In this document: positions 18,129 to 34,347 of the stretch, in pieces
Layout: each line of letters begins with the position of its first letter
Numbering within the stretch: the stretch's first letter is position 1
NCBI RefSeq assembly: GCF_000949475.1
Contig: NZ_JRHC01000001.1
Coordinates: 1,240,001-1,304,000 of the forward strand
DNA length: 64,000 nucleotides
From: Draconibacterium sediminis
Lineage (GTDB): Bacteria; Bacteroidota; Bacteroidia; Bacteroidales; Prolixibacteraceae
Reading direction: 5' to 3'
Translations under genes and position numbers: made by a program
Notes under the pieces: model-generated
The model's input: the letters and a program-made list of their open reading frames with translations, nothing else
Told to the model about the DNA's origin: nothing
Databases searched by the model: none

Positions 18129-18179
18129 AGCTTTTTGTTTCTTGTTTTCAATGGGTTTCTGTTTTCTGTAGCCTGGTTT

Positions 18180-18908
18180 CTAGTTTACTTTGATGATTTC
18201 GGAGGCGTCCTTCAAATCCTGCTCTTCGATGACTCCACTTCCTTTGTAATATACTTTTGAAGCACCTCTGGCAGTAACATCCAATTTTTGCTGAACGCTT
18301 AGAGAGATTTCAGAGCCCCCATCCAGATTGGCATTCAGGTAATCGCTGACAAAATCAAAACCGGTCATTTCAGAAGCTCCTGTTGCATCGATATGGAAAT
18401 TGGTGCAAGCGCCATCGATTTCCATTGTTGAGGCACCTTCAAGGTATGCGTTTACTGTTACGGTTTCAATCGATCCTTTAAACTGGCTGGCTCCAATCAA
18501 TTCTATTTCAAACTGATCGTTTTGTAAAGCATCGTTGAATTCAACGGTTGTGGCGCCCTCGGCCATAACTTTTGAAAGGGAAGTGGTTGTAATGTAAACG
18601 TTTAAAACCGGGACCCCGCGAATGTTGGTGTTTTTCTCCAATCCTACCGATAAAAGATCGCCCGTTTGATCTGTTTCGATAACTGAGTGTAAGTTTTCAT
18701 TGGCCTCAATACGAACTGATTCCTCTGTTTCTGAGAAACTAACATACACATGGAAGACATCTGAAACGGCCAACTGGCTAACACCTGACACCGAAAAATC
18801 GATTGTGGTAACATTTGATGATGGAACTACTTCTAAATGATCTTTTTCACATGAAGTGAATAAAACTCCGATTGCTAAAATTGTTGCTAAAAATACTTTT
18901 GTTTTCAT
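18180..18908 (-). CDS. GIN-domain (DUF2807) lipoprotein
   Basis: 242 residues. Lipoprotein signal with lipobox LFTSC (Cys20), followed by a single right-handed beta-helix-like GIN/DUF2807 domain with repeated short turns such as KVMAEGATTVEF, IELIGASQFKGS, AYLEGASTMEIDG, HIDATGASEMTG, NLDGGSEISLS and DVTARGASKVYYKG. These repeated GAS/GGS turns are diagnostic. GIN-domain proteins are envelope proteins of unknown biochemical function that may be adhesive. The gene precedes a TonB-dependent receptor by 51 bases and is probably co-transcribed with it. Confidence 0.9.
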   Translation of the reverse strand: MKTKVFLATILAIGVLFTSCEKDHLEVVPSSNVTTIDFSVSGVSQLAVSDVFHVYVSFSETEESVRIEANENLHSVIETDQTGDLLSVGLEKNTNIRGVPVLNVYITTTSLSKVMAEGATTVEFNDALQNDQFEIELIGASQFKGSIETVTVNAYLEGASTMEIDGACTNFHIDATGASEMTGFDFVSDYLNANLDGGSEISLSVQQKLDVTARGASKVYYKGSGVIEEQDLKDASEIIKVN

Positions 18909-19091
18909 GACTTTAAATTTTAATTGTTACTAATGATATTGTTTAAGTTTTCTGTTTTAAGTTCTAAATCTCTTGGTCAAATTTGGGGTATTAAAGGCCT
19001 GTAATCGACCGACTGCATAAAGTCGAACTGTTTCATCGCTGTATAATTGGTTCGATTGAATATTTTAATTCGTTCGACTATGTTGTAACAG

Positions 19092-20333
19092 TTAGTTTCC
19101 CTCGTGTTTAAGACATATACTGCTGTCTTGAATAGATTCGTTTTCATAGCGTTCTTTTTGTGGTAAGGCCATTTTATAGCTGTATTTTTTCCAGATGTAT
19201 TCGATGGGCCCCTGATTAAATCGTTGCAGATAAAAATGAGTGATTAAGGTTTGGAATACATAAAATCCGATGGCAATCATCCACGATTGAAAATTGGTAA
19301 GCTTTCCGAAAAGATTAAAGAGGTTGAAACAATGATAGAATACAAAAACGTAAAGAAACGATTGCAGAATATAATTGCTCAGCGCTGTGCGGCCAACCGG
19401 ATTAAAAAATTGTAATACTTTTCTAAAAGATTTATACTGGTATAATTTCAGGAATGCCGAAATGTAAAACAGGCTTTGCAAAATCATTCCTGTCACAAGA
19501 ACAAACGGCACCCAGATTAATGAATAATCCAATTCCAGATCGCCAACTGATATCTTATAGAAAATAAAACTTGCTGCCAGGCCAAAAGTAAGACCAAGTG
19601 TGATAAACCATGTTGTTAGTTTAGCATGTTTTTCCGGATGTTTGAAGAAATCGATTTTTGCCAGGATAAACCCAATTAGCATATTCCCAAAAGCAAATAC
19701 AAGTGTTAAGGGCATATCTCTAAGGAAATTAGTCCACGGGTCGAACATAAAATTTAATTTCAAATACCGCAGAAACGATGTGGCTACCGGTATCTCGCGA
19801 GCCAGTTCAAAATCGAAATTACGCGAAGCCCAGCCCAAAGCAGTTAAGCCGATATAAATGGCTCCGGTTAATACTACATTTAGCAGTACCGCCAAAACAA
19901 CCAGTTTTTTAACCGATACTTTTCGTAGGATTAAAAGAAATATACCACCTAAAGCATAGGCGCGTATAATGTCGCCATTCCACAACAACAGGCTGTGTGC
20001 ATAACCCACTCCGAATAAAAGCAGCATTCGTACGATAAAATACTTATTGAAGTTTACACTCCTCTTGGCAGCCCGTTGCATTTGAATGTAAAATCCAAAA
20101 CCGAACAAAATAGAGAAAATGGTAATAAACTTTTTATCTACTAAAAAGTGGTACAGGAAAGTCATTAATGAATCCAGTTCTCCAGTTACCGGCGTGTTAT
20201 ACTCATAAGGAATATTGGCAATTATTATCCCTAATAAGGCAAATCCGCGTAAGGCATCAACAGAATCAATTCTGTTCTTTTTCGTTGTTTGTTGCAACTT
20301 TGCTTCTTGTATTTCCTGTTTCTGATTCATCAT
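19092..20333 (-). CDS. DUF418-family membrane protein (YeiB type)
   Basis: 413 residues with about ten hydrophobic membrane segments. The N-terminus has the family signature RIDSVDALRGFALLGIIIANI. The C-terminal DUF418 part has a conserved pattern (GRTALSNYILQSF, QRFNQGPIEYIWKKYSY). Members are inner-membrane proteins related to acyltransferase-3 enzymes; no activity is established. The upstream gap (20334-20549) holds four regularly spaced direct repeats that look like operators. The gene follows an AraC regulator on the same strand, so regulation by it is plausible. The first two codons are both ATG, so the start could be 20330. Confidence 0.92.
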   Translation of the reverse strand: MMNQKQEIQEAKLQQTTKKNRIDSVDALRGFALLGIIIANIPYEYNTPVTGELDSLMTFLYHFLVDKKFITIFSILFGFGFYIQMQRAAKRSVNFNKYFIVRMLLLFGVGYAHSLLLWNGDIIRAYALGGIFLLILRKVSVKKLVVLAVLLNVVLTGAIYIGLTALGWASRNFDFELAREIPVATSFLRYLKLNFMFDPWTNFLRDMPLTLVFAFGNMLIGFILAKIDFFKHPEKHAKLTTWFITLGLTFGLAASFIFYKISVGDLELDYSLIWVPFVLVTGMILQSLFYISAFLKLYQYKSFRKVLQFFNPVGRTALSNYILQSFLYVFVFYHCFNLFNLFGKLTNFQSWMIAIGFYVFQTLITHFYLQRFNQGPIEYIWKKYSYKMALPQKERYENESIQDSSICLKHEGN

Positions 20334-20413
20334 TAAATATTTTTGTGTTGAAAAATCGTTAATGCAAATATCAAGTGAATCAGTGGTTTATGAAAGTTTT
20401 TGGTGTCGCGCAT

Positions 20414-20521
20414 TCGGAAATCAGAACATGCTAAACACCGGAATGCAGAATTCAGGACAAAAGAGGATTTGTTGTGCAGAAATCAGGACAGCGGAAAATC
20501 GTGTCTGCAGAAATCAGGACA
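20414..20521 (-). promoter_or_regulatory. Four direct repeats with exact 31-bp period, candidate operator array
   Basis: The 15-mer GCAGAAATCAGGACA (plus strand) occurs exactly at 20476-20490 and 20507-20521, with one change at 20445-20459 (GCAGAATTCAGGACA) and three at 20414-20428 (TCGGAAATCAGAACA). Starts are 31 bases apart each time, about three helical turns, while the intervening bases are not conserved. The array sits 81-188 bases upstream of the DUF418 start and just after an AraC gene stop. It looks like protein binding sites on one DNA face. Confidence 0.7.
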
Positions 20522-20549
20522 TGAGAATATGGTGAAAAGGAGGATGTTT

Positions 20550-21668
20550 TTAGTTGTTTCGGAAATTGCCGGGTGTTTTTCCGGTTTTCTTTTTAAACGC
20601 AATGTACATTGCCGAGCGCGATTTAAATCCGGAGTCTAAACCGATACCTTCAATGGAAAGGTGATCGTTGGTTTTGTCGTTCAAAATTTCCAAAGCTTTT
20701 TCTACCCGATAGTTGTTTACCCATTCGTTAAAATTAAAACCAAAGCTCTTGTTTATGCAGGTTGAAATGGTACGGGCTGAAATATTTATTTCTTTGGCGA
20801 AATCGTGAATGGATAAATCCTGGTTCAGGTAGTATTGTCCGGTTTCCATCGCATTTTTAACCGATTCGCAAATTGTATTTGATGATTTGGATTTGTCTTC
20901 TTCCGGATCTTTTCGAGTATGATTTTCTTTGGTTTCAGCTCTCTGGTAAAATAGATCCTGCTGTGTAAATGCTTTAAAACTTACAATATAAATAATGATG
21001 GATACAGCTCCCCAGATTACCACAACAATGTCAGATTGACCAACTCCTCCGATAAGAATCCGGATTAATTCGATTCCCCATAAAACTACAACAGGAACAA
21101 AAATCAATACAAATTGCCACAGCCAGTTAATATCGAGAAGTGTTATATCAGAATACTCGTTTTTTACAATATTCCGGTATTTTATTGTTTCAACAATAGC
21201 AAGTGAAACTGCCGAAACAGTAAGTAAATAGGCGTAATATTGTATTGCCATAAAGTATTTGTCGACTGTGTCGAATTCAATAAAACTATAAATGGATTTC
21301 CCGTTCACAAAAAATATTCCCAGGTTGACGAAAGTAATGGCAACAACGATAAAAGCCAGAATATAATGGAGGCGAATAAAGGATTTATAAGAAGATGCCC
21401 GCTGCAGTTTAACAAGAACATAGTGCAGGAAAAGTGTCGGGAATAAGAGCTTTACTTCGGGAATAGTAAAATATCGTTCGATAGAATATCCCCCAATGTT
21501 GCTAAATGGTAAAAGATCGGTAGCTGCTCCAAGTATAAATGTAATGAGAAAAAATCCTAACAACTTATTGGAGAAACTTTTGTGTTTCTTTGAAAAGATA
21601 AAAACAAATCCAAGCAGAACTCCTTGAAAGACAGCAGCCCAAATTAAAGTAGTTATAATTATTTCCAT
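20550..21668 (-). CDS. Membrane-anchored AraC-family transcriptional regulator
   Basis: 372 residues. About seven hydrophobic helices occupy residues 1-235 (for example TTLIWAAVFQGVLLGFVFIF and VSAVSLAIVETIKY). A charged linker (KENHTRKDPEEDKSKSS) leads to an AraC DNA-binding domain at about 270-370: YYLNQDLSIHDFAKEINISARTISTCINKSFGFNFNEWVNNYRVEKALEIL and GLDSGFKSRSAMYIAFKKKTGKTPGNFR, the two HTH motifs. The layout suggests a one-component sensor in the inner membrane. It lies 25 bases after a paralogous gene and just upstream of the phased repeats and DUF418 gene. The signal is unknown. Confidence 0.92.
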   Translation of the reverse strand: MEIIITTLIWAAVFQGVLLGFVFIFSKKHKSFSNKLLGFFLITFILGAATDLLPFSNIGGYSIERYFTIPEVKLLFPTLFLHYVLVKLQRASSYKSFIRLHYILAFIVVAITFVNLGIFFVNGKSIYSFIEFDTVDKYFMAIQYYAYLLTVSAVSLAIVETIKYRNIVKNEYSDITLLDINWLWQFVLIFVPVVVLWGIELIRILIGGVGQSDIVVVIWGAVSIIIYIVSFKAFTQQDLFYQRAETKENHTRKDPEEDKSKSSNTICESVKNAMETGQYYLNQDLSIHDFAKEINISARTISTCINKSFGFNFNEWVNNYRVEKALEILNDKTNDHLSIEGIGLDSGFKSRSAMYIAFKKKTGKTPGNFRNN

Positions 21669-21693: not shown

Positions 21694-22836
21694 TTATGTT
21701 ACAGATACCTTGTTTTTTCTGCGGTATTCAGTGGGCGTAAGGCCCGTATGTTTTTTAAAAGCAGTGTTAAACGACGATTTTGAATTAAATCCTACTTCAT
21801 ATAATATTTCTAAAACGGTGTATTCTTTCCGGTCGGGAGCAGCAAGTAATTCCATTGCTTTTTCAATTCTGTACTCATTAACAAAATCAAAAAAGTGTTT
21901 GTTGAGGTGGTGGTTGATCAATATGGACAATTCGCGCGATAAAATTCCGGTTTTTTGTGCCAGCGAATGTAGGGTAAGCGATGCATCCAAAAACGGTTCT
22001 TTTTCTTTCATATATTGATTAACACGCTCAATTAGTTCGTTATTCTCTTCCTCCGGTTTTAATGCCGAATTACCTGCATTTTGTTTTACCAGCTTTTGTA
22101 CCGCGGGTTGTGCTTCTGTTTCGTCGATAAAAAGTTGGGGCGATCGTAACCCAAGGATGATAAGCCAGCAAAACAAAATTAAAACAGCTGTTATTACAAC
22201 ATAAGAGATGAAGGAAAAACTTTCAAGCTGAAATACCCACCGGGTAATGATATTTACCATCGACAGGGAATAAAGCACAGCAACAAATAGAATTAGATTT
22301 GATATGTATCCATATCTGTTTGTGTTGGTATTTGAGTAGTTTTCAAAGAAAATTTCTTTGTGATTTTTTAGCTGGCGATAAGAAAAATACAGATACAGAA
22401 AGGTTTGCAAATACAACACGGCATAAAAACACAGCCCAATAATTCGTTCGGTTTTTGCCGGTACGCTACCCTGCATGTTTTCAATGATGATAAGGGAAAT
22501 GACTATACCGAGGAGAATAAAAAAAGGTATGGTATGCAACAGGTCTTTTGTTTTTAATCTGTAGTTTGGGAATAACGAGGTTTTGACATGTAAAAAGAAG
22601 GCCGGAGCAGCCAGATAGATCAAGATTTGTAGCAGTGCAGTAATGTTTTCCGACCAGCGGTTTAATATCAGATCAGCAAAAAAATCCAACACATTATAAG
22701 CCAGTAAAACGATAAATATGGCGATAAAGTAGTTGCTTAACTTTTTCCCTTCTTTGTTAAACAGGAGGTAAATGGCAAACAGAAATGCCTGAAATCCGGC
22801 GAGTAATTCGATTGCATTTAAGAACGTAATTTCCAT
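21694..22836 (-). CDS. Membrane-anchored AraC-family transcriptional regulator
   Basis: I prefer the ATG at 22836 (MEITFLNAIELLAGFQ), which aligns with the start of the neighbouring paralogue; an ATG at 22860 adds eight residues. About 380 residues with roughly seven membrane helices, a linker (QPAVQKLVKQNAGNSALKPEEENNE) and a C-terminal AraC domain (DASLTLHSLAQKTGILSRELSILINHHLNKHFFDFVNEYRIEKAMELL; EVGFNSKSSFNTAFKKHTGLTPTEYRRK). It probably forms a two-gene unit with the regulator downstream (25-base gap). The target is unknown, but neighbouring envelope genes are candidates. Confidence 0.92.
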   Translation of the reverse strand: MEITFLNAIELLAGFQAFLFAIYLLFNKEGKKLSNYFIAIFIVLLAYNVLDFFADLILNRWSENITALLQILIYLAAPAFFLHVKTSLFPNYRLKTKDLLHTIPFFILLGIVISLIIIENMQGSVPAKTERIIGLCFYAVLYLQTFLYLYFSYRQLKNHKEIFFENYSNTNTNRYGYISNLILFVAVLYSLSMVNIITRWVFQLESFSFISYVVITAVLILFCWLIILGLRSPQLFIDETEAQPAVQKLVKQNAGNSALKPEEENNELIERVNQYMKEKEPFLDASLTLHSLAQKTGILSRELSILINHHLNKHFFDFVNEYRIEKAMELLAAPDRKEYTVLEILYEVGFNSKSSFNTAFKKHTGLTPTEYRRKNKVSVT

Positions 22837-22910
22837 CAATTCGATATTTGCTCCATACAATTATACAAATAAATGGAGATTGAGTGAAATATGGTTTTGA
22901 TGGAAAACCT

Positions 22911-23612
22911 CTAAGTGAGAAAGAAAAACAGGTTCTCCATTGCCCAGTTGGTAATGATTCGTTCTTTATCCAAAAAAATCAACGTAATTCCAAATACATC
23001 ATAAAAACCATGTGTAAGAACCAGTACCCAAAGGTTTTTCTGGTTTTTGTAGAATATTGAACTAAACAACAAGGCTACAAATCCGGTGGTAATTATTCCC
23101 GAGGTTCCCTGGTATAAATGCGCAAAACCAAATGCAAAAGATGAAATAAGTATTGCTGCAGCCCATGCCGGCTGGCTGTTTCCAAAAATACGGGCCAGTT
23201 GTTTAAGCATGTAACCACGATATAAAAACTCCTCGCCAAACGCGGCAAAAATCCACATTATTGCCAGAAACACCAGGTAGTTTTGCCAGTTTCCTTTCAG
23301 GCCTTCGAAATTGCTTAAATCGGTAGCACCGTAAAAATATTCGATTACCGGTTGAAAGAGAAAGTCGTTTGCAACAATAATGAGAATGGTATACAAAACG
23401 GCTTTGAGAATGGTTTGTGCAAGCGGATTTTTTTGAATTGAAAAAAACGACCAGTCCCATTTTACTGCCCAGGCGGTGACTAAAACGATAACATACCCCA
23501 GGATGGTGCCATAATTGCTGGTGGCAATTGATAGCGTTAGAATTATAGAAATAAACGTTAGAATTACGGCCGGTTGCGTGAGGAAAGTTGCTGCTTTTTG
23601 TCTTGCTTTCAT
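22911..23612 (-). CDS. CPBP-family intramembrane glutamic protease
   Basis: 233 residues with about six to seven membrane helices. The three CPBP (CAAX protease and bacteriocin-processing) motifs are intact: EEFLYR (E127, E128, R132), FGFAH (H165) and HGFYD (H201). Relatives include Rce1 and bacterial enzymes linked to bacteriocin immunity or signal processing. It is the last gene of a tight run: DUF6090 protein, then retropepsin-like lipoprotein, then this gene, with six-base gaps. A second CPBP domain is fused to a TonB receptor further upstream on this strand (25838-29041). The substrate is unknown. Confidence 0.93.
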   Translation of the reverse strand: MKARQKAATFLTQPAVILTFISIILTLSIATSNYGTILGYVIVLVTAWAVKWDWSFFSIQKNPLAQTILKAVLYTILIIVANDFLFQPVIEYFYGATDLSNFEGLKGNWQNYLVFLAIMWIFAAFGEEFLYRGYMLKQLARIFGNSQPAWAAAILISSFAFGFAHLYQGTSGIITTGFVALLFSSIFYKNQKNLWVLVLTHGFYDVFGITLIFLDKERIITNWAMENLFFFLT

Positions 23613-23618
23613 TTTAAA

Positions 23619-24911
23619 TTAGTTAAAAGTTACCGATGCATATTTAAAACTGATGATCATCTCATTAAACTGTTTAATGTAATCTTGTCCAAAGTTGCCG
23701 TGGAAATTACTTTCCGTGCTTCCAATATCTTCAATGTGCAGACGAACGCTATCGAGTTGAGCCTCTGAATCTGCTACCTTTAAATTAATTTTGTCGATTA
23801 CATAACCCTCAAATTCAAGAACACCGCCACCACTTCCGGCGGTAAATTTTTCCTTCTCAAAATTTTGCTCAATCTGGCTTTTATAGTCCTTATAAAATTG
23901 CGGATACAAAGATGTGGTTGTGGCGCCGGTATCAAAATCAAAACGCAAAGTATCACCGTTGTATTCGGCAGCAATTATTGGCATTAAACCGTTCAAAGCA
24001 AAATTATTGTACGAGTATTCTACCGGGTTTTGCGGCACAAAAATTTCGTTGTCTTTACTCACCCGAATTTCATCCATGGCTTCAATTACCGGAAAACCAA
24101 TTGCTCCGTTTATATAATAATCGATTTGCGGAAACGAAAGGTCTTTGTCATTGAGTACCAAAAAGAAAACATTTTTAAAGGTAATGCCGCCAATGTTTAG
24201 TTCGGGTGCAATTGCGATATCGCTTTTAACACGTAAACCGGTTGCTGCAGTTACATAAAAATCGGCTTCCGTTATTTTTAAATCCAGTTTTTTTGCCAGC
24301 GACCGTACCATAACCGAAAAATTGGCGCCCGTATCGAAAAGCAGGTTTTTGGTGGAGTCGCCAAAGCTTACATCGATATTAAAGAGCCCCACTTTATCTT
24401 TTGTCATCGGAATGGAAGTATCAGCGGATTTGACAATTTCCTGACGGGGCACATCTTTTAATGCCTTCCAGATTTTTATTTCATTTTGCAGGCTTTCTAA
24501 CTCTGAAGAGTCGTTGAGCACTGCAAAATTGTTTAAAATAATTTCGCTGGCTTTTGCCGCCTCAGAATATTCGTACAGGTTTACATGGTTTAATAGTTTT
24601 GTATTGTAAAGTTCGTTGCGCATTGTATCGGTAAGTGAGGCCTTGTGTTTTTCGAGTAATTCGCCAATGGCCAGGTTCGATTCTTCAGCCTGATTAAATA
24701 CATTGCTGATTAATGCACTGTAGTAAAGTTTATGTGTTTCTGAAAGCTGATCGATATGTTGATTGTAGGTGTCTTTTAGTTTAAAAAAGTCGGAGACTTC
24801 GATATAGTGTTCCAGCTTATTCACCACATTCTGGTTGGATACTTCTGACCTTGATTGTCCACAGCCAGCTAAAAATGTAGCGATGATTAGTATTGATAAA
24901 ATTCTTTTCAT
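23619..24911 (-). CDS. Retropepsin-like aspartic protease lipoprotein with two catalytic lobes
   Basis: 430 residues. Lipoprotein signal MKRILSILIIATFLAGC (Cys17). Residues 20-165 are helical, possibly TPR-like. Then two retropepsin lobes follow: the first has LLFDTGA (Asp193) and NGAIGFPVI; the second has FDFDTGATTTSLY (Asp327) and NFGQDYI near the C-terminus. Viral and most bacterial retropepsins carry one DTG per chain and dimerise, so this chain has a pepsin-like two-lobe layout with both aspartates. The envelope location is inferred from the lipobox. It lies between a DUF6090 gene and a CPBP protease gene, each six bases away. Proteolytic activity is inferred from the motifs only. Confidence 0.88.
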   Translation of the reverse strand: MKRILSILIIATFLAGCGQSRSEVSNQNVVNKLEHYIEVSDFFKLKDTYNQHIDQLSETHKLYYSALISNVFNQAEESNLAIGELLEKHKASLTDTMRNELYNTKLLNHVNLYEYSEAAKASEIILNNFAVLNDSSELESLQNEIKIWKALKDVPRQEIVKSADTSIPMTKDKVGLFNIDVSFGDSTKNLLFDTGANFSVMVRSLAKKLDLKITEADFYVTAATGLRVKSDIAIAPELNIGGITFKNVFFLVLNDKDLSFPQIDYYINGAIGFPVIEAMDEIRVSKDNEIFVPQNPVEYSYNNFALNGLMPIIAAEYNGDTLRFDFDTGATTTSLYPQFYKDYKSQIEQNFEKEKFTAGSGGGVLEFEGYVIDKINLKVADSEAQLDSVRLHIEDIGSTESNFHGNFGQDYIKQFNEMIISFKYASVTFN

Positions 24912-25837: not shown

Positions 25838-28800
25838 TTAAAACTCAATCTTATAACTAAGATTTGGGATAACAAGCCCGTCGTATTTTGTATCAATCTG
25901 GTTTGTTTTCAGGTTGTAGAAATCGTTTGAATATTCTTCGGTGCAATTGGCATTGAGCACCTGCAATGACCACACCGATGAGTATTTTGCTTTGTTTTTC
26001 CGATATGAAAGGGTGAAAGATACTACCGGCAAATCATCATGTTTTTGACTAAATGCGATGTTCCCGTTTGTTTCGCCATAAACCACATCGTGTTGTTGCA
26101 GCGAGGTATCCATATCAATTGGTTCAATGCGGTTTCCTCCCAGGTAATTTAGCCTCACGTTGGCACTCAAAATGTTGTTTTTAGCGGTTTGCCATTCTTT
26201 CCCGGCCATCAGGTTAAAAACGTAGTTTCGGTTAAAACGCGTGTTTCGTTCAATACCATCGGCTGCTGAATATTTCGAATCGAAAACCGAAGCAGTTAGC
26301 ATGTAATAATAACCGCGGCTTAAAAATTTCTCAAGCGTAAAATCAATACCCACATTTCGTCCTTTTCCTTTGCTAACCAGCACTTCGTTAAAGAAAAGTG
26401 TGTTGTTATTGTTTAAAGTTGAGATATAACTATCGGGGCTTACCGGAACATTGTTTAATTGCTGGTAGTAGGGTTCAATTCGTAGATGAAGGTTGTCGGT
26501 GAGTTTTGCCTGGTAAGAAAATACATAATGGGCAGATTTCATAAAGTCGAGATCTTTGTTGGGTGTGCTGCCGTTGGCCGAAACAAAATATACCGGCAAC
26601 TGCTCCAAACGGCTGTGAATTCCGTAGGCCAATCCCAGGCTGTGTTTGTTGTTGATGTTATACTTTAACCCGATTCGTGGTTCAATCGAAAAATTATCGT
26701 TTAGCAATAAATATTGGGCGTTAACACCGGCATTTAAAACAAGGCTTTGAGACAGGTTAATTTTCGATTGCGTGTAGAATTGAACAAAGTCGGTGCTGCC
26801 AGTTTGCTTGGCAATTTGGGTAGGTGTTTCTCCTTCGGCAAGCGATTCTGCCACATCAATATCAAAAGAAAGATGATTGTATCGAACACCTGTTTTATTA
26901 CTGTGTGTTTCGTTAAAACGTTTGGTAAAATCGCTTTGAACCGTAATTTGGCTGGTGGTGTTTTGGGCTTTCGATTGCGGATAAGGATTAAGGTTAAAGT
27001 CCAAACGCTGCTCTTCAAACTCCAATCCGCTGCCCGAATACGATACGGCTGTTTTTAGGAATGCTTTGCCGGGCAGATTTATTTTATGCGAAAGGGCGGT
27101 TGCAAACATATAAATTGATGTTTCAGAATTGTCGCGATCAAAGTCTGATTCCCAATCAATGCTATCGGCTGCGTCCATATTTACGCCATCGATTGTGCCA
27201 ATTCCCCAAAGTGTAAAAGTTCCACTCTTTTTAGTTGGGAAGTTGGTTTTAAACGACAAATCCTGATACCGTAAAACTCCGGCATCATCGGGTAGAAGTG
27301 GTGCCACAAGTGCCATGGTTGAATTCCGGTAATTGACAATATAAGTAGCATCCGATCCTTTTTTGAACGGCCCTTGTGCCATTGCATCAACACCTAAAAT
27401 TCCGGCTTCGAAAGCATATTGCCGTTTGTTGCGGTTTCCTTCGCGTAGTTTTATATCGAAAACACCGGATGAGGCATTTCCGTATTCTGCCGGAAAAGCA
27501 CCGGTGTAAAAATCGCTGTTTGCCATCATTTGGTTACTAATGGCCGACATTAGTCCTCCGCCGGCAATGGTGAGGTTGGCAAAGTGGTTCGGATTCGGTA
27601 CCTCCACGCCGTCGATGCGCCACAATAAACCGTCGGGATTATTTCCGCGAACCGAAATGCCATTGTCGCTTATCGACGGATTTGCCACACCGGCAAACGA
27701 AGCTGCCAAACGTGCCGGATCATCCAATCCACCTGCATAACGCTGGGTTTCTTCCACTGTAAACTGTCGGCTGCTTAAAGTTGCCATGCTGTTTAGCGGT
27801 GTTGATTTGTTCACCCGAACCACAACTTCATCAAGTTCAGCATTGCTTTGTTGCATCCCGATATTCAGATTAATCTCCTGCCCCGAACTCACCAGTAACT
27901 CCTTCATCTCATAGGTGTCGTAACCAACCATTGAAATGCTTAGGATTTGGCGCCCAACCGGAACGTTTTCCAGAATGAAGTTCCCTTCTGTATCTGAAAC
28001 AGTGCCGATTAACGGTTCGCTTCCTTTAACTACAATGCTTGCAAAAGGCAACGATTCGTTTGTGATGTCATCAAACACTTTCCCATTAATGGTTTGCGTA
28101 ACATTCTGTGCCGACAAACTGCCTGTTAATCCAACAAAAAGCAATCCAAGAAACATAAAGGCAACGATCAATTTCGAAGTCTTGTTTACCCAAATTGTTC
28201 TGTTTTTTTGACTTGTTGTTTTTATTTCTTTCGAGAAGAAAAAAGATTTGTCGTTTGCTACGATATAAAGTGCAAACAGTATTAATAATCCCGTTTGAAT
28301 GACTTTACTCATCGGGTGGGTGGCGAATATTTCGTTAAAAAAACCGGCTGCGATGTGAAATATGACGGGCAAAATGATATTTCGGTTGGCTTTGTAATAA
28401 ATCCAGTTCATAATAAGTACAAAGGGGAAAAGACTTACTATAAAATTGAGCGAATAAATCCAACCTGCCTCAACCAGATTACTGTGGTAATAATCTTTAA
28501 TACCACTTAGTGGTACATGCCATATTCCCCAGAATAAAGCGAATAATAATGATGTTGCGAACAGATTGAAACGAACCCGCAAAGAATCAGTCCCATACGA
28601 ATGCCAGGCCAGTTCTTCCAACAATGGAGCAATGATCAGCATCACCCAAACAGGGAAAATGCCCGATGTAAACGAAAAAGATTTTGCGAATTGAAACTGG
28701 TCGATACTGTATCCAAACATTAGCGATACAGCTTGAGCAAGCAAAATGCTAAAAGGCATTAATAATAATGTAAGTACGATATAGGTTGAGCGGATTTCTT

Positions 28801-29041
28801 TAAAATTAAAAATCCTTCGGCTTAAATCGTCGGCCAGGTTTTTATTTTGACTGGCCATAAAGAGTGTAATCAAAACCGGAGCCAGTAAGCCTAAAAATGC
28901 AATAATGCTGGCCAATGATTGTGGTGCTGAACCATTGTTTTCGATGTGACTTATATGGCCCGCCAGAATCCATAATATCCATGGAATTAGTGTTGCCAGA
29001 CCATAAAATAAAGCTGTTTTGTTGTAAATCCTGGTGTTCAT
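25838..29041 (-). CDS. Fusion of CPBP intramembrane protease and TonB-dependent receptor
   Basis: 1067 residues in one uninterrupted frame. Residues 1-265 are a multi-pass CPBP protease domain: EELAWH at 142-147 (the usual Arg of EExxxR is His147), FWGIWHVP with His175, and FHIAAGFFN with His229. A charged linker (270-288) leads to one more hydrophobic helix, SKLIVAFMFLGLLFVGLTGSLSA, ending at residue 311 in an ideal signal-peptidase site. Next come a CarboxypepD_reg-like domain (TINGKVFDDITNESLPFASIVV), a plug (GISVRGNNPDGLLWRIDGVEVPNPNHF) and a full barrel ending IPNLSYKIEF. No ATG or GTG lies between the halves. The receptor half is a paralogue of the one at 15759-18128. Cleavage after Ala311 would free the receptor for the outer membrane. 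Such a fusion is unusual. Confidence 0.9.
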   Translation of the reverse strand: MNTRIYNKTALFYGLATLIPWILWILAGHISHIENNGSAPQSLASIIAFLGLLAPVLITLFMASQNKNLADDLSRRIFNFKEIRSTYIVLTLLLMPFSILLAQAVSLMFGYSIDQFQFAKSFSFTSGIFPVWVMLIIAPLLEELAWHSYGTDSLRVRFNLFATSLLFALFWGIWHVPLSGIKDYYHSNLVEAGWIYSLNFIVSLFPFVLIMNWIYYKANRNIILPVIFHIAAGFFNEIFATHPMSKVIQTGLLILFALYIVANDKSFFFSKEIKTTSQKNRTIWVNKTSKLIVAFMFLGLLFVGLTGSLSAQNVTQTINGKVFDDITNESLPFASIVVKGSEPLIGTVSDTEGNFILENVPVGRQILSISMVGYDTYEMKELLVSSGQEINLNIGMQQSNAELDEVVVRVNKSTPLNSMATLSSRQFTVEETQRYAGGLDDPARLAASFAGVANPSISDNGISVRGNNPDGLLWRIDGVEVPNPNHFANLTIAGGGLMSAISNQMMANSDFYTGAFPAEYGNASSGVFDIKLREGNRNKRQYAFEAGILGVDAMAQGPFKKGSDATYIVNYRNSTMALVAPLLPDDAGVLRYQDLSFKTNFPTKKSGTFTLWGIGTIDGVNMDAADSIDWESDFDRDNSETSIYMFATALSHKINLPGKAFLKTAVSYSGSGLEFEEQRLDFNLNPYPQSKAQNTTSQITVQSDFTKRFNETHSNKTGVRYNHLSFDIDVAESLAEGETPTQIAKQTGSTDFVQFYTQSKINLSQSLVLNAGVNAQYLLLNDNFSIEPRIGLKYNINNKHSLGLAYGIHSRLEQLPVYFVSANGSTPNKDLDFMKSAHYVFSYQAKLTDNLHLRIEPYYQQLNNVPVSPDSYISTLNNNNTLFFNEVLVSKGKGRNVGIDFTLEKFLSRGYYYMLTASVFDSKYSAADGIERNTRFNRNYVFNLMAGKEWQTAKNNILSANVRLNYLGGNRIEPIDMDTSLQQHDVVYGETNGNIAFSQKHDDLPVVSFTLSYRKNKAKYSSVWSLQVLNANCTEEYSNDFYNLKTNQIDTKYDGLVIPNLSYKIEF

Positions 29042-29224: not shown

Positions 29225-30346
29225 TCAGAACTTTAATTCTGAAATGTATTGCGAAGGAGTGACTGATTTGTGTTTCCTGAAAACATTGTTAAACGACGAT
29301 TTTGAATTAAACCCCGAATCGAGCGCATGTGCCAGCAGGCTAAAATTTTTATTGGATTGAACCCGCTGAATAAATTCTTCAACACGATACTTATTTACAA
29401 AATCGTGAAAGTTTACCTGCTCGTATTGGTTAATGATTTGCGACAGATGATTCGAAGACAATGATAAAGTGTTCGCCAGTTCGCTTAAAGTTAGTTTGGG
29501 ATTTAAATAGGGTTTTTCTTTTTGCATTAATTCCAGCAATTCACCGTGTTTCTGGATAGCTAATTCCTGTTTTAATCCCGATCTTTTGTATTCGCTTTCA
29601 GTCCTCAGCAAATCAATTTCATTTTTCACAGTGTTGGTAAAAAGATCCTGTTGCCGTATTCCCGAATATCCGATAAATACCACAAATGCCACAATAATTG
29701 AATAAAATAAAATGTCGGCGTTAAACGGAAACTGAAGGCGCAGCATTTCGCGCATGATGGTAACTGCAGCAGCGGTTATAAACACAGAGCCAATTCCAAG
29801 AATCGCAAAACGCAGCCAATTCATATCGATGCGGTTACTGTACGAGTAATTATCCTCAACAATTTTATGTCTTTTCAGTAACATTCTGTAGGCTAAAATT
29901 GCATAGGCGATTCCTGATATAATGAAGGATAGGAGAAGAATTGTTGAAAAAAGGCCGTAATCGTCAATCAGGCCTTTGTCAACCTGAACTTTTTCGTCGG
30001 CGGTGTATGTAAAATAGAAGGGCATCATTAGCAGGTAAGAAACCAGTGCCGGGGCAAAATGGATATAATCTCTTTTTTGTATGTGTTTTTTACTCTTTAA
30101 CGAATACCGAACATAGAGGTACAAAAAAGGGCCGTATAAAAGCGGGAAAGGCGCGGTAATTCCAATCAGGTGAGGATATAGATCCCAGTATCCCTTATAA
30201 TTTAGAAAATACCCGGTAAGATGAATTCCGATAACGACCAGCCACAACGATAGTATGTTGTCGGTAAGCACTTTGTCTTTTTTCGAAAATAGGAGAATAC
30301 CCAAAAAGAATGAGAGTACAATTCCGATATTTAAAACAACAGTCAT
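29225..30346 (-). CDS. Membrane-anchored AraC-family transcriptional regulator
   Basis: 373 residues. Residues 1-235 hold about seven membrane helices (VVLNIGIVLSFFLGILLF, LLLSFIISGIAYAILAYRM, and others). The C-terminal AraC domain has KLTLSELANTLSLSSNHLSQIINQYEQVNFHDFVNKYRVEEFIQRV and LDSGFNSKSSFNNVFRKHKSVTPSQYI. It has the same architecture as the two AraC genes at 20.5-22.8 kb and is a third copy in 10 kb. It lies directly upstream of the CPBP-TonB receptor fusion on the same strand (183-base gap), and it is divergent from the DUF1080 gene. A role in controlling the fusion is plausible. Confidence 0.92.
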   Translation of the reverse strand: MTVVLNIGIVLSFFLGILLFSKKDKVLTDNILSLWLVVIGIHLTGYFLNYKGYWDLYPHLIGITAPFPLLYGPFLYLYVRYSLKSKKHIQKRDYIHFAPALVSYLLMMPFYFTYTADEKVQVDKGLIDDYGLFSTILLLSFIISGIAYAILAYRMLLKRHKIVEDNYSYSNRIDMNWLRFAILGIGSVFITAAAVTIMREMLRLQFPFNADILFYSIIVAFVVFIGYSGIRQQDLFTNTVKNEIDLLRTESEYKRSGLKQELAIQKHGELLELMQKEKPYLNPKLTLSELANTLSLSSNHLSQIINQYEQVNFHDFVNKYRVEEFIQRVQSNKNFSLLAHALDSGFNSKSSFNNVFRKHKSVTPSQYISELKF

Positions 30347-31744: not shown

Positions 31745-31950
31745 ATAACATTAATTTGAGAATTGTCATCGAGGAAACCTAAACAAACGGATCTGGATTG
31801 GATTTCCTTTCGCATTTCAAGCCAACTTTAAATTACAGGCAATAATTTGTGCTTTCGAAAACTATTCTAAACACAATGTGTTAATTTCAAATGTTATTAC
31901 GAAGAGGGATGTTTCGCCGCATTGGAATATTTCCCGAAAAGCAATTTGTT

Positions 31951-32955
31951 ATGATGGAAAAAAGCAACTATAATTTTAAACCGCTACCTGGTTATGAGCA
32001 ATTTGAAGCCACAACCCAGATTATCATTGCTGAAATTCTTCGTCGTAAGCTGAATTTTGAGATTATCGATGCCGATAATAACCTCATCTCGGTTCAGTAC
32101 AACCATAAAGAATACATTATTCACGAAGGAACCATTTCGGATGCCAACAGCCTGATTGCCTTCTGGATATCAAACGATAAATGGATGACCCGGCAATTCC
32201 TTCAGCGAAAAGGTATTCACCAGGCAAAAGGTATTTTGCTAAAGCCCGGTTATCAGGCCGATGTGCTGGATGCGATTCCTTTGCCCGCTGTGGTAAAACC
32301 GGCTAATACCGATCATGGAATTGCAGTAAGTACAAACATTCAATCGCGCGACGAGCAAATTGCCGCTATCAACAATGCATTTAAATTTTCGGATAAAGTG
32401 ATTGTTGAAGAATTTTGTCCGGGGCAGGAATACCGCTTTCTGGTAATCGATTATGTGGTTCGGGCCATTGCCTGGCGTGAACCGGCCAATGTATTGGGCG
32501 ATGGAAAATCATCAATTCAGCAATTGGTTGATATGAAGAATAAAGGCCGCGGAACGGATTATACGCATCCTTTGTTAAAAATAAATATTGATGAGGAAGT
32601 GATCCGACATTTGAAGGCGCTTTCGATGACCCCGGAAACGATTTTGAAAGAGGGAGAGAAGGTGTACCTGCGTAAAAATTCAAACCTGAGTACCGGAGGA
32701 GACAGCATTGATGTAACCGATGAAATTCCGGATTTTTATACAAATGTTGCCGTTGAGGCTGCAAAATCGGCAGGCCTGAAAATTGCCGGGATCGATATTA
32801 TAATCAAAGACATGGAACAGACTGCTTCGCACGATAATTACATTGTGGTGGAACTGAATGCGCCGGCCATGTTGTCGATGCACGACTATCCGTACATCGG
32901 GAAAAACCGTCATGTGGAAAAATATGTTCTCGACAGCATTTTGAATTCAAAGTGA
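31951..32955 (+). CDS. ATP-grasp glutathione synthetase, GshF C-terminal type
   Basis: I prefer ATG 31951 (MMEKSNYNFKPLPGYEQFE), about 334 residues; the frame is open to an ATG at 31891. The sequence matches the C-terminal ATP-grasp half of bifunctional GshF: TTQIIIAEILRR, VVKPANTDHGIAV (nucleotide-binding Lys), VIVEEFCPGQEYRFLVI, WREPANVLGDGKSSIQQLV, YLRKNSNLSTGGDSIDVTDEI, and the metal-binding end VVELNAPAMLSMHDYPYIGK. It should ligate glycine to gamma-glutamylcysteine. The adjacent gene (24 bases on) is a gamma-glutamylcysteine ligase, which supports this over cyanophycin synthetase or D-Ala ligase roles. It is the first gene of an apparent four-gene operon. Confidence 0.85.
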   Translation: MMEKSNYNFKPLPGYEQFEATTQIIIAEILRRKLNFEIIDADNNLISVQYNHKEYIIHEGTISDANSLIAFWISNDKWMTRQFLQRKGIHQAKGILLKPGYQADVLDAIPLPAVVKPANTDHGIAVSTNIQSRDEQIAAINNAFKFSDKVIVEEFCPGQEYRFLVIDYVVRAIAWREPANVLGDGKSSIQQLVDMKNKGRGTDYTHPLLKINIDEEVIRHLKALSMTPETILKEGEKVYLRKNSNLSTGGDSIDVTDEIPDFYTNVAVEAAKSAGLKIAGIDIIIKDMEQTASHDNYIVVELNAPAMLSMHDYPYIGKNRHVEKYVLDSILNSK

Positions 32956-32979
32956 TCGCTGACAGCAAAAAACAATTAA

Positions 32980-34347
32980 ATGACAGAAACAGAAAAAAGA
33001 ATAGAAATAAACCATAAATCGCAACTGATCGATTATTTCGAGCGGGGGAGCAAACCTCCCGAGAGATGGGGAATTGGTACTGAAAACGAAAAGTTTCTAT
33101 TTCGCAAAGAAGATTTTGGCCGCCTTCGTTTTGAGCAGGATGGCGGAATTTTGAAGATCCTGAACAAGATGCAACAAGATGGCTGGGCGCCAATTCTTGA
33201 AAACAATATTGCCATTGGTCTTCGGAAGAATGGTGCATCAATTACGCTGGAGCCCGGTGGGCAATTCGAGCTTTCGGGCGATAATTTTAGCACGATTCAC
33301 GAAACGTATCGCGAAACCAAAAAGCATTTTAAGGAACTCAACACGATAAGTCAGCACTACAATTTTTTTAGTCTGCCAATGGGCGTTGATCCCTTGTCGG
33401 ACGTTGCCGATGTGCCGTGGGTACCTAAAGAACGCTATCGTTGGATGCGCAATTACATGCCCACAAAAGGCGATCTTGGGCTGCACATGATGACAAACAC
33501 CGCATCAACACAGGTAAACCTCGATTTTTGTAGCGAAAAGGATATGGTGAAAAAGATGCGCGTATCGCAGGCATTACAAGCGGTTGTTACCGCGATTTTT
33601 GCGAACTCGCCATTTTCTGCAGGAAAACCCAATGGCTATTTATCGTATCGTTCGCATATCTGGAATTATACCGATCCGGATCGATGTGGTTTTTTACCTT
33701 TTATTTTTGATGAGGGATTTGGTTTTGAGCGTTGGGTTGACTACTTGCTGGATGTGCCGATGTATTATATTTTGCGCGATGGGGAGTATATTTCGACAAA
33801 CGGACTTACCTTTCGTGGATTTTTTGAAGGCAAACATTCGCTAAAGCCAACGCAGGAAGACTGGGAAACGCATGTATCAACGATTTTCCCGGATGTACGG
33901 CTCAAACAGTTTATTGAGATGAGAGGCGCTGATGCAAGTTGTGTGTCGCACATTGCAGCTGTTTCGGCCTTGTGGGTTGGTTTGTTGTACGATGGTGATA
34001 GTCTGGCAGAAGCCGATGAACTTATTTCTAAATGGGACGTTGACACCATGCAGGAGCTTCGTGCCCAGGTTCCCGTAAAAGCGTTGAATGCAGAAAGTGG
34101 CAATCTGCACGCCGGGACTATTGCAAAACAAATTTGCCGAATTGCCTCAGATGGACTTAAGCGGCGAGCAAAGGTGCGCTGTTCGGAAGATGAAAGCCGG
34201 TTTTTAGCTCCGGTTCAAGAAATTACCGAAAGCGGAATTACCGTGGCAGAAAGGCTGTTGAAGCGCTATCACGAGGGTAACGAGACCTTGCCGGAACTGG
34301 TATACAACTGGCAAAACGAGCAGATGCAAAAATATATTGATGCTTAA
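32980..34347 (+). CDS. gshA: Glutamate-cysteine ligase, plant/alphaproteobacterial type
   Basis: 455 residues, full length for the plant-type GCS2-like family. Diagnostic segments are GIGTENEKF near residue 30, ITLEPGGQFELSGD near 90, TNTASTQVNLDF, YRSHIWNYTDPDRCGFLPF, and TIFPDVRLKQFIEMRGADAS near 300. It ligates glutamate to cysteine through the gamma-carboxyl, the first step of glutathione synthesis, in the cytosol. It sits 24 bases after the ATP-grasp gene and 18 bases before an ABC exporter pair. Pairing a plant-type GshA with a GshF-type synthetase domain is unusual, since natural GshF carries a different, E. coli-like ligase. An ergothioneine-type EgtA role is less likely. Confidence 0.93.
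   Translation: MTETEKRIEINHKSQLIDYFERGSKPPERWGIGTENEKFLFRKEDFGRLRFEQDGGILKILNKMQQDGWAPILENNIAIGLRKNGASITLEPGGQFELSGDNFSTIHETYRETKKHFKELNTISQHYNFFSLPMGVDPLSDVADVPWVPKERYRWMRNYMPTKGDLGLHMMTNTASTQVNLDFCSEKDMVKKMRVSQALQAVVTAIFANSPFSAGKPNGYLSYRSHIWNYTDPDRCGFLPFIFDEGFGFERWVDYLLDVPMYYILRDGEYISTNGLTFRGFFEGKHSLKPTQEDWETHVSTIFPDVRLKQFIEMRGADASCVSHIAAVSALWVGLLYDGDSLAEADELISKWDVDTMQELRAQVPVKALNAESGNLHAGTIAKQICRIASDGLKRRAKVRCSEDESRFLAPVQEITESGITVAERLLKRYHEGNETLPELVYNWQNEQMQKYIDA

What the first reader, a model, noticed from the sequence alone, without database searches (positions are those of the whole stretch)
25838..29041. CPBP intramembrane protease fused in frame to a full TonB-dependent receptor
One uninterrupted 1067-codon frame holds a multi-pass CPBP protease (EE142-143, H175, H229) and then a complete CarboxypepD_reg/plug/barrel receptor. 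The two halves belong in different membranes. The helix joining them reads like a signal peptide with an ideal cut site (Ala311), so the chain may be a polyprotein split by signal peptidase, leaving the protease in the inner membrane and sending the receptor out. The nearest precedent I know of is fusions of M56 peptidases to carboxypeptidase-like domains. The Arg of EExxxR is His here. The alternative is a recent chance gene fusion.
Basis: partly seen in the sequence, partly recalled or inferred. Interest (0 to 1): 0.75.

Follow-up and report, generated by a model that had tools for sequence, protein, structure and literature searches.

The report
Two-membrane protease-receptor polyprotein
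One bacterial gene makes a single chain holding an inner-membrane protease and an outer-membrane receptor, joined by a built-in signal peptide that should let the cell cut them apart; the same join recurs in many relatives, which suggests the two parts work together.

Summary
The fusion is real, on the minus strand (25838-29041), and not a strain oddity. A search limited to long proteins found 73 CPBP+TonB-receptor fusions, down to 54% identity. EE142/143, H175 and H229 are invariant in all 73. The junction is the most variable stretch, yet keeps a signal peptide: net positive charge in 73/73, A/S/G at -1 in 72/73, Gln at +1 in 72/73, the Bacteroidetes "Q-rule". Positive-inside topology puts the ninth helix in signal-peptide orientation. 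I support a polyprotein cut by signal peptidase I at A311|Q312; the cut is inferred.

The ancestral state is an operon: 7TM-AraC regulator, CPBP, TonB receptor. The receptor tree forces at least 5 gains or losses of fusion. The same CPBP subfamily is also fused, behind a signal peptide, to MipA (1 protein) and tentatively to an Omp85-like barrel (2). So CPBP, an outer-membrane barrel and a membrane regulator form a recurrent module, most likely importing and processing a peptide-like ligand (inferred). Arg-to-His and Asn-to-Gly active-site changes are subfamily traits; protease activity is untested.

The parts
25838..29041 (-). Fused gene, 1067 codons: CPBP protease + internal signal peptide + TonB-dependent receptor
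28226..29041 (-). CPBP (MmRce1-like) half, residues 1-272, 8 TM helices; active-site residues E142, E143, H175, H229
28109..28183 (-). Internal signal peptide: helix 287-305 (AF2) to cut site after Ala311
   Evidence: cleavage inferred
27818..28090 (-). CarboxypepD_reg beta-sandwich, residues 318-408, ending in LDEVVV (TonB-box-like, motif recalled)
   Evidence: (73.1 bits)
27464..27727 (-). Plug domain, residues 439-526
   Evidence: 20.4 bits, below cut-off 23.9; much of it low pLDDT
25841..27421 (-). Outer-membrane beta-barrel, residues 541-1067
29225..30346 (-). 7TM-AraC regulator (373 aa: seven predicted TM helices, flexible linker 237-256, HTH_18), 183 bp upstream, conserved partner

Best explanation
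A conserved bacterial polyprotein that serves two membranes. The chain inserts as an 8-TM CPBP protease with both ends in the cytoplasm. The next hydrophobic segment then acts as an internal signal peptide, is exported N-in/C-out and is cut by signal peptidase I at A311|Q312. The protease stays in the inner membrane. The receptor, with an N-terminal Gln that should become pyroglutamate, goes through the periplasm to the outer membrane. The gene arose by end-to-end fusion of adjacent genes in an ancestral operon, 7TM-AraC regulator - CPBP - TonB-dependent receptor; fusion would fix a shared expression level for the two. Most likely job (inferred): the receptor imports a peptide-like ligand, the CPBP processes it or passes the signal on within the inner membrane, and the 7TM-AraC regulator senses the outcome and controls the operon.
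For: Shown by sequence: 73 fusions among 76 long proteins with this CPBP half. Junction columns are the most variable of the protein (mean 2.2-2.8 bits, residues 261-300). Position -1 is A54/S15/G3/P1 and +1 is Q in 72 of 73; net positive charge precedes the core in 73 of 73. The Bacteroidetes mean for predicted Gln at +1 of signal peptidase I sites is 71% (PMC5837995 passages). K+R per residue is 0.22-0.26 in loops that the model puts in the cytoplasm and 0-0.06 in the periplasmic ones (72 sequences). Of 18 unfused CPBP-receptor pairs, 12 have gaps of -4 to 14 bp and all of these 12 have the AraC gene upstream; all 18 receptors have Gln at the matching site (read by eye). One same-genus genome has the three genes in a different order (L151). 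The AraC orthologue is in 8 of 140 family genomes (E 1e-70), the CPBP in 10 of 140 (E 1e-40), both in 7 (P 5e-9, not corrected for kinship). In L140, whose CPBP half is identical to that of Saccharicrinis carchari P0063, the junction has no ATG/GTG/TTG, so its receptor has no usual start codon of its own there. The CPBP subfamily is also fused to MipA and tentatively to an Omp85-like barrel, each behind a signal-peptide-like stretch.
Against: No cleavage data. One homologue has Pro at -1 (P0056) and one Lys at +1 (P0039). That all 73 junctions are open is partly by selection, since the search admits only long proteins. The fusion is patchy: 3 of 10 CPBP-bearing family genomes, 2 of 14 in the order sample, 1 of 7 (the own genome) in the phylum sample, so fusion is not needed for function. 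Of 94 distinct CPBPs in fetched loci, 57 had neither an upstream AraC relative nor an adjacent receptor by my tags; contigs or fetched stretches end near some, three of these (L049, L051, L055) have an AraC relative downstream, and one (G034) showed an AraC upstream when more DNA was read. So this CPBP has other contexts, including Clostridium (L077). The Asn of HxxxN is Gly in 136 of 167 rows, and the homologous N231 matters in MmRce1 (PMC12067869 passage). P0076 (Pontibacter) kept the fusion but lost much of the CPBP half. No ligand or substrate is identified.
Confidence: 0.65

Rival explanations
1. Internal translation start: the fused frame is translated, but the receptor is mainly made from its own start codon inside the junction, as in an ordinary operon with overlapping genes.
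For: 19 of 73 fused proteins have a Met N-terminal of the hydrophobic core; five (P0067, P0069, P0071, P0072, P0073) keep MRN/MKK/MKT-like starts. The window has TTG291 and ATG296.
Against: 54 of 73 have no such Met (GTG and TTG starts cannot be seen in the proteins); L140 has no ATG/GTG/TTG in the junction; in the window TTG291 or ATG296 would drop the positively charged n-region.
Confidence: 0.12
2. Uncut tether: the chain stays whole, with the CPBP in the inner membrane and the barrel in the outer membrane as a permanent bridge.
For: One open frame; no cleavage data.
Against: Only about 115 residues separate the cut site from the start of the plug region, 80-90 of them a folded beta-sandwich; by my estimate (periplasm width recalled) too short to cross the periplasm. 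Cleavage-site residues are conserved while the rest of the linker drifts.
Confidence: 0.04
3. Trans-envelope signalling by intramembrane proteolysis: ligand binding at the receptor leads the CPBP to act on the 7TM-AraC regulator, releasing or activating its DNA-binding domain, in the manner of RseP in FecA-type signalling.
For: AraC and CPBP stay coupled where I saw no receptor (11 loci, some with contigs that end nearby) and in 7 of 8 family genomes with the AraC gene; the regulator has a low-confidence, presumably flexible linker 237-256. A CPBP that binds a sensor kinase (CovS) is described in PMC10482373 (passage), and RseP in receptor signalling in PMC9249621 (passages).
Against: No STN signalling domain in the receptor; many CPBPs of this subfamily have no AraC neighbour by my tags; no substrate shown.
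Confidence: 0.25
4. Recent chance fusion or assembly error.
For: Patchy occurrence.
Against: 73 homologous fusions; a receptor clade of 64 fusions plus the truncated P0076 with SH-aLRT 96.
Confidence: 0.01

Closest known systems
MmRce1 (Methanococcus maripaludis, PDB 4cad), CPBP/Rce1 glutamic intramembrane protease
   Different: Arg of EExxxR is His; the Asn231 position is Gly in most; below the NF041656 equivalog cut-off (192.6 of 425 bits); carries a C-terminal receptor
TonB-dependent receptors with CarboxypepD_reg domain
   Same: CarboxypepD_reg, plug and barrel in order; fold matches PirA, BtuB, FhuA, RagAB
   Different: Made behind an 8-TM protease; signal peptide is internal
fbcH of Bradyrhizobium (cytochrome b/c1 polyprotein cut by signal peptidase; recalled, the listings of three literature searches held no paper on it)
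   Same: Integral membrane protein followed by an internal signal peptide and an exported partner (recalled)
   Different: There both products join one inner-membrane complex (recalled); here the products should go to two different membranes
FecA/FpvA-type cell-surface signalling with RseP (PMC9249621, passages)
   Same: TonB-dependent receptor functionally linked to an intramembrane protease and transcription control
   Different: No STN domain found; no anti-sigma or sigma factor among the neighbours scanned; regulator is 7TM-AraC; protease is of the glutamic Rce1 type, not zinc site-2
Myxosortase MrtX (PMC11980579, passages) and MroQ (PMC10482373, passages)
   Same: Bacterial CPBP proteases with dedicated roles in surface sorting or peptide-signal maturation
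   Different: No receptor fusion described in the passages; different substrates and contexts

Membership tests
CPBP / Rce1-like (PF02517) | Profile match above curated cut-off | tested here: met
   40.5 bits against 22.4
CPBP / Rce1-like (PF02517) | Eight-TM Rce1 fold | tested here: met
CPBP / Rce1-like (PF02517) | Catalytic Glu and His residues (E142, E143, H175, H229) | tested here: met
   invariant in 73/73 fusions and in all 167 aligned rows, a few of them duplicates
Canonical active-site motifs EExxxR and HxxxN | Arg in EExxxR and Asn in HxxxN | tested here: not met
   His147 and Gly233; so filed as Rce1-like fold family with a variant active site, activity inferred
MmRce1 equivalog NF041656 | Score above equivalog cut-off | tested here: not met
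   192.6 bits against 425
CPBP / Rce1-like (PF02517) | Proteolytic activity | not testable with these tools
   needs biochemistry
TonB-dependent receptor | Plug domain | tested here: inconclusive
   20.4 bits, under 23.9; low pLDDT in much of this region
TonB-dependent receptor | Receptor barrel fold | tested here: met
   Pfam barrel model not matched at E 0.001
TonB-dependent receptor | TonB-dependent uptake | not testable with these tools
   TonB-box-like LDEVVV seen in sequence; motif recalled
Signal peptidase I substrate (Bacteroidetes Q-rule) | Positive n-region, hydrophobic core, small -1 residue, Gln +1 | tested here: met
   rule from PMC5837995 passages
Signal peptidase I substrate (Bacteroidetes Q-rule) | Observed cleavage | not testable with these tools
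   needs N-terminal proteomics
FecA-type surface-signalling receptor | STN domain and FecR/sigma pair | tested here: not met
   no STN; neighbours scanned are AraC, CPBP, aspartyl protease, DUF418, DUF2807, 3-keto-disaccharide hydrolase, ATP-grasp and one without a match
   no M56 match; precedent itself not examined

The most novel reading that the evidence does not exclude
CPBP proteases of this EELAWHSYGTD subfamily, an interchangeable outer-membrane barrel (TonB receptor, MipA, probably Omp85-like) and a 7TM-AraC regulator form a new class of trans-envelope sensing system, in which the outer-membrane partner and the inner-membrane protease are repeatedly welded into one polyprotein and the protease relays the signal to a 7TM receptor that is itself the transcription factor.
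Probability: 0.25. Interest if true: 0.88.

Novelty: new variant of a known kind. Interest (0 to 1): 0.7.

Why it matters
Repeated fusion is strong evidence that two proteins in different membranes act in one pathway, and it gives a bacterial protease family whose roles are mostly unknown a concrete partner set: outer-membrane barrels and a membrane-bound AraC regulator. It is also a natural design in which one translation product should be sorted to two membranes by an internal signal peptide, a simple test case for signal-peptide recognition after a polytopic protein. It is directly testable in cultured environmental Bacteroidota.

Tried and rejected
Chance fusion or assembly error: rejected. 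FecA-type sigma signalling: no STN domain, no sigma or anti-sigma gene among the neighbours scanned. Barrels as general neighbours of CPBPs without fusion or downstream receptor: MipA 3 and OMP_b-brl 3 (3 also match OMP_b-brl_2; overlap not shown) of 69 neighbours against at most 2 of 75 background genes, Fisher P 0.15, so only suggestive; AraC 11 of 69 against at most 1 of 75, P 0.0017. The background figures are upper bounds read from a capped list, the two sets had different length limits, and related loci are not independent. TM part of the regulator: Foldseek gave no hit at E 0.001 or better for the whole model; GPCR-like bundles at E 0.03-0.3 are not evidence. Microcystinase-like peptide degradation (PMC6914704 passages) was considered as a variant of the peptide-uptake reading; no link found. 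Literature: searches with CPBP, CAAX, TonB-dependent receptor, fusion, AraC and operon listed no paper on this fusion by title and abstract; one search listed 10 of 189 and one search listed 8 of 12; the library is open-access PMC only, and of these listings I opened only passages of PMC10434189 and PMC9249621. The CPBP and receptor trees are quick trees without bootstrap; P0073 and the rows beside it sit on long branches. The 73 are database clusters at 90% identity, most without organism names. P0070 lacks part of the CPBP half and was left out of the CPBP tree and of the topology count (72 rows); four further fused fragments (P0078-P0080, P0094) were not counted. The receptor tree kept only receptor halves of at least 600 residues (69 of 73 fusions, 16 of 18 unfused pairs). 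one search returned the best 80 of 190 relatives.
Full report

It is not a single-strain event. A search with residues 1-300, which admits only long proteins, gave 76 hits; 73 are CPBP+CarboxypepD_reg fusions, two are CPBP joined to another domain, and one (P0076) has lost much of the CPBP half. Of the 73, 67 are 1040-1100 residues long and six are shorter. Identity in the CPBP half runs from 100% to 54%. EE142/143, W146, H147, H175 and H229 are invariant in all 73. E142, E143, W146, H175, H229 and E237 are invariant in all 167 rows of fused and standalone relatives (a few duplicates among them), and H147 in 165 of 167. The Asn that MmRce1 needs (N231; PMC12067869, passages) is Gly in 136 of 167. 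Protease activity is therefore plausible but unproven.

The junction is a signal peptide. Residues 261-300 are the most variable part of the protein (mean 2.2-2.8 bits per column). In 73 of 73 a net positive charge precedes a hydrophobic core; the -1 residue is Ala 54, Ser 15, Gly 3, Pro 1; the +1 residue is Gln in 72. Gln at +1 is the hallmark of signal peptidase I cleavage in Bacteroidetes, on average 71% of predicted substrates (PMC5837995, passages). Loops that the model puts in the cytoplasm hold 0.22-0.26 Lys+Arg per residue and periplasmic ones 0-0.06, over 72 sequences, so the ninth helix runs N-in/C-out as a signal peptide must. Only 19 of 73 have a Met that could start the receptor separately. 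In L140, whose CPBP half is identical to that of Saccharicrinis carchari P0063, there is no ATG, GTG or TTG between the FFF motif and the cut site; of six fused loci examined at DNA level, the other five do have such codons. I conclude that the receptor is released by signal peptidase I at A311|Q312. This is inference from sequence; no cleavage data exist here.

Where it came from. Of 18 unfused CPBP-receptor pairs, 12 have gaps of -4 to 14 bp, all with the AraC gene upstream (in one, L083, the contig cuts the receptor). All 18 receptors begin with a signal-peptide-like stretch in the same register and with Gln after it, read by eye. A same-genus genome has the same three genes in another order (L151: AraC, receptor, CPBP). 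Within 140 family genomes the AraC orthologue occurs in 8, the CPBP in 10 and both in 7 (hypergeometric P 5e-9; genomes are related, so this overstates independence). The regulator is predicted as seven TM helices, a low-confidence linker and the HTH domain (mean pLDDT 81.7).

Fusion changed more than once. The receptor tree needs at least 5 changes of the fused label on well-supported branches. One clade (SH-aLRT 96) holds 64 fusions plus the truncated P0076. Another holds four fusions mixed with two unfused Neomarinimicrobiota genes (SH-aLRT 100). P0073 joins a different receptor lineage, on a long branch. The five fused genes outside the main clade (P0067, P0069, P0071, P0072, P0073) all carry what looks like the receptor's old start, MKK, MRN or MKT; 14 of the other 68 fusions also have some Met there, so this is a trend, not a rule. 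The CPBP tree needs at least 6 changes. Five flavobacterial operons have a CPBP 71-76% identical to ours but a receptor only 54-55% identical, so partners appear to have been exchanged. Both are quick trees without bootstrap.

The partner can be another barrel. P0077 joins the CPBP to MipA over the full profile (E 1.1e-38). P0074 and P0075 join it to a domain that in P0075 matches Omp85 weakly (E 8e-4, 19.4 bits, below the 24.0 cut-off); P0074, similar to it by eye, has no such match at E 0.1, so this partner is tentative. Each has a signal-peptide-like stretch with an A-x-A or S-x-A site at the junction. Two, probably three, kinds of outer-membrane barrel fused to one protease subfamily through a signal peptide argue for a functional link rather than an accident. 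Among 69 neighbours of CPBPs without fusion or downstream receptor, 11 were AraC, 5 TetR, 3 MipA and 3 OMP_b-brl. Against 75 background genes only the AraC excess is significant (P 0.0017; barrels P 0.15).

How it probably works. Shown: gene structure, conservation, gene neighbourhood. Inferred: cut by signal peptidase, protease in the inner and receptor in the outer membrane, joint regulation by the 7TM-AraC protein, and a peptide-like ligand. CPBP proteins mature a peptide signal (MroQ), act as bacteriocin receptor and immunity protein (SkkI), or bind a sensor kinase (CovS) without needing proteolysis (PMC10482373, passages), and one sorts surface proteins (PMC11980579, passages). An intramembrane protease acting downstream of a TonB-dependent receptor is known from FecA-type systems (PMC9249621, passages), but the parts differ here. 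I favour uptake plus processing of a peptide-like ligand with feedback through the 7TM-AraC protein, and keep direct proteolysis of the regulator as the main rival.

Against this reading: fusion is patchy (3 of 10 CPBP-bearing genomes in the family, 2 of 14 in the order sample, 1 of 7 in the phylum sample). By my tags 57 of 94 distinct CPBPs in the fetched loci showed neither an upstream AraC nor an adjacent receptor, though contigs or fetched stretches end near some, L049, L051 and L055 have an AraC relative downstream and G034 showed one upstream when more DNA was read. A relative occurs in Clostridium (L077), which lacks an outer membrane (recalled). The CPBP thus has a wider function that the barrel module has recruited.

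Known or new. The parts are known families; the polyprotein principle has a precedent in cytochrome b/c1 (fbcH, recalled; the listings held no paper on it). Sending the two halves of one chain to two membranes, and doing so repeatedly with different barrels, is new to me and was not in the listings.

Noticed in passing
window 15759-21668 (-): A second AraC cluster: AraC with a TM-rich N-terminus by eye (20550), DUF418 membrane protein (19092), DUF2807 protein (18180) and an unfused receptor (15759, 41% identical to the fused one).
   Followed up: partly
window 21694-24911 (-): A third AraC gene with a TM-rich N-terminus by eye, beside a second, standalone CPBP (22911-23612) and a retropepsin-like aspartyl protease (23619-24911).
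   Followed up: partly
P0076 (Pontibacter sp. 13R65 in the source name): Fusion whose CPBP half has a large internal deletion while the receptor and signal peptide are kept: a natural loss of the protease half.
   Followed up: partly
P0077: CPBP fused to a complete MipA barrel behind a signal peptide; organism unknown.
   Followed up: partly
L040, L043, L044, L045, L047 (Flavobacteriaceae): CPBP close to the main fused clade but receptor from another clade: partner exchange; the next gene is weakly similar (23-28%) to the DUF2807-like protein that follows the fusion in L038.
   Followed up: partly
window 29225-30346 (-): Predicted seven-TM domain joined directly to an AraC DNA-binding domain; a receptor that would itself be the transcription factor.
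   Followed up: partly
window 31891-34347 (+): ATP-grasp protein next to a GCS2 glutamate-cysteine ligase family protein, 24 bp apart; perhaps a two-gene glutathione-type pathway.
   Followed up: no
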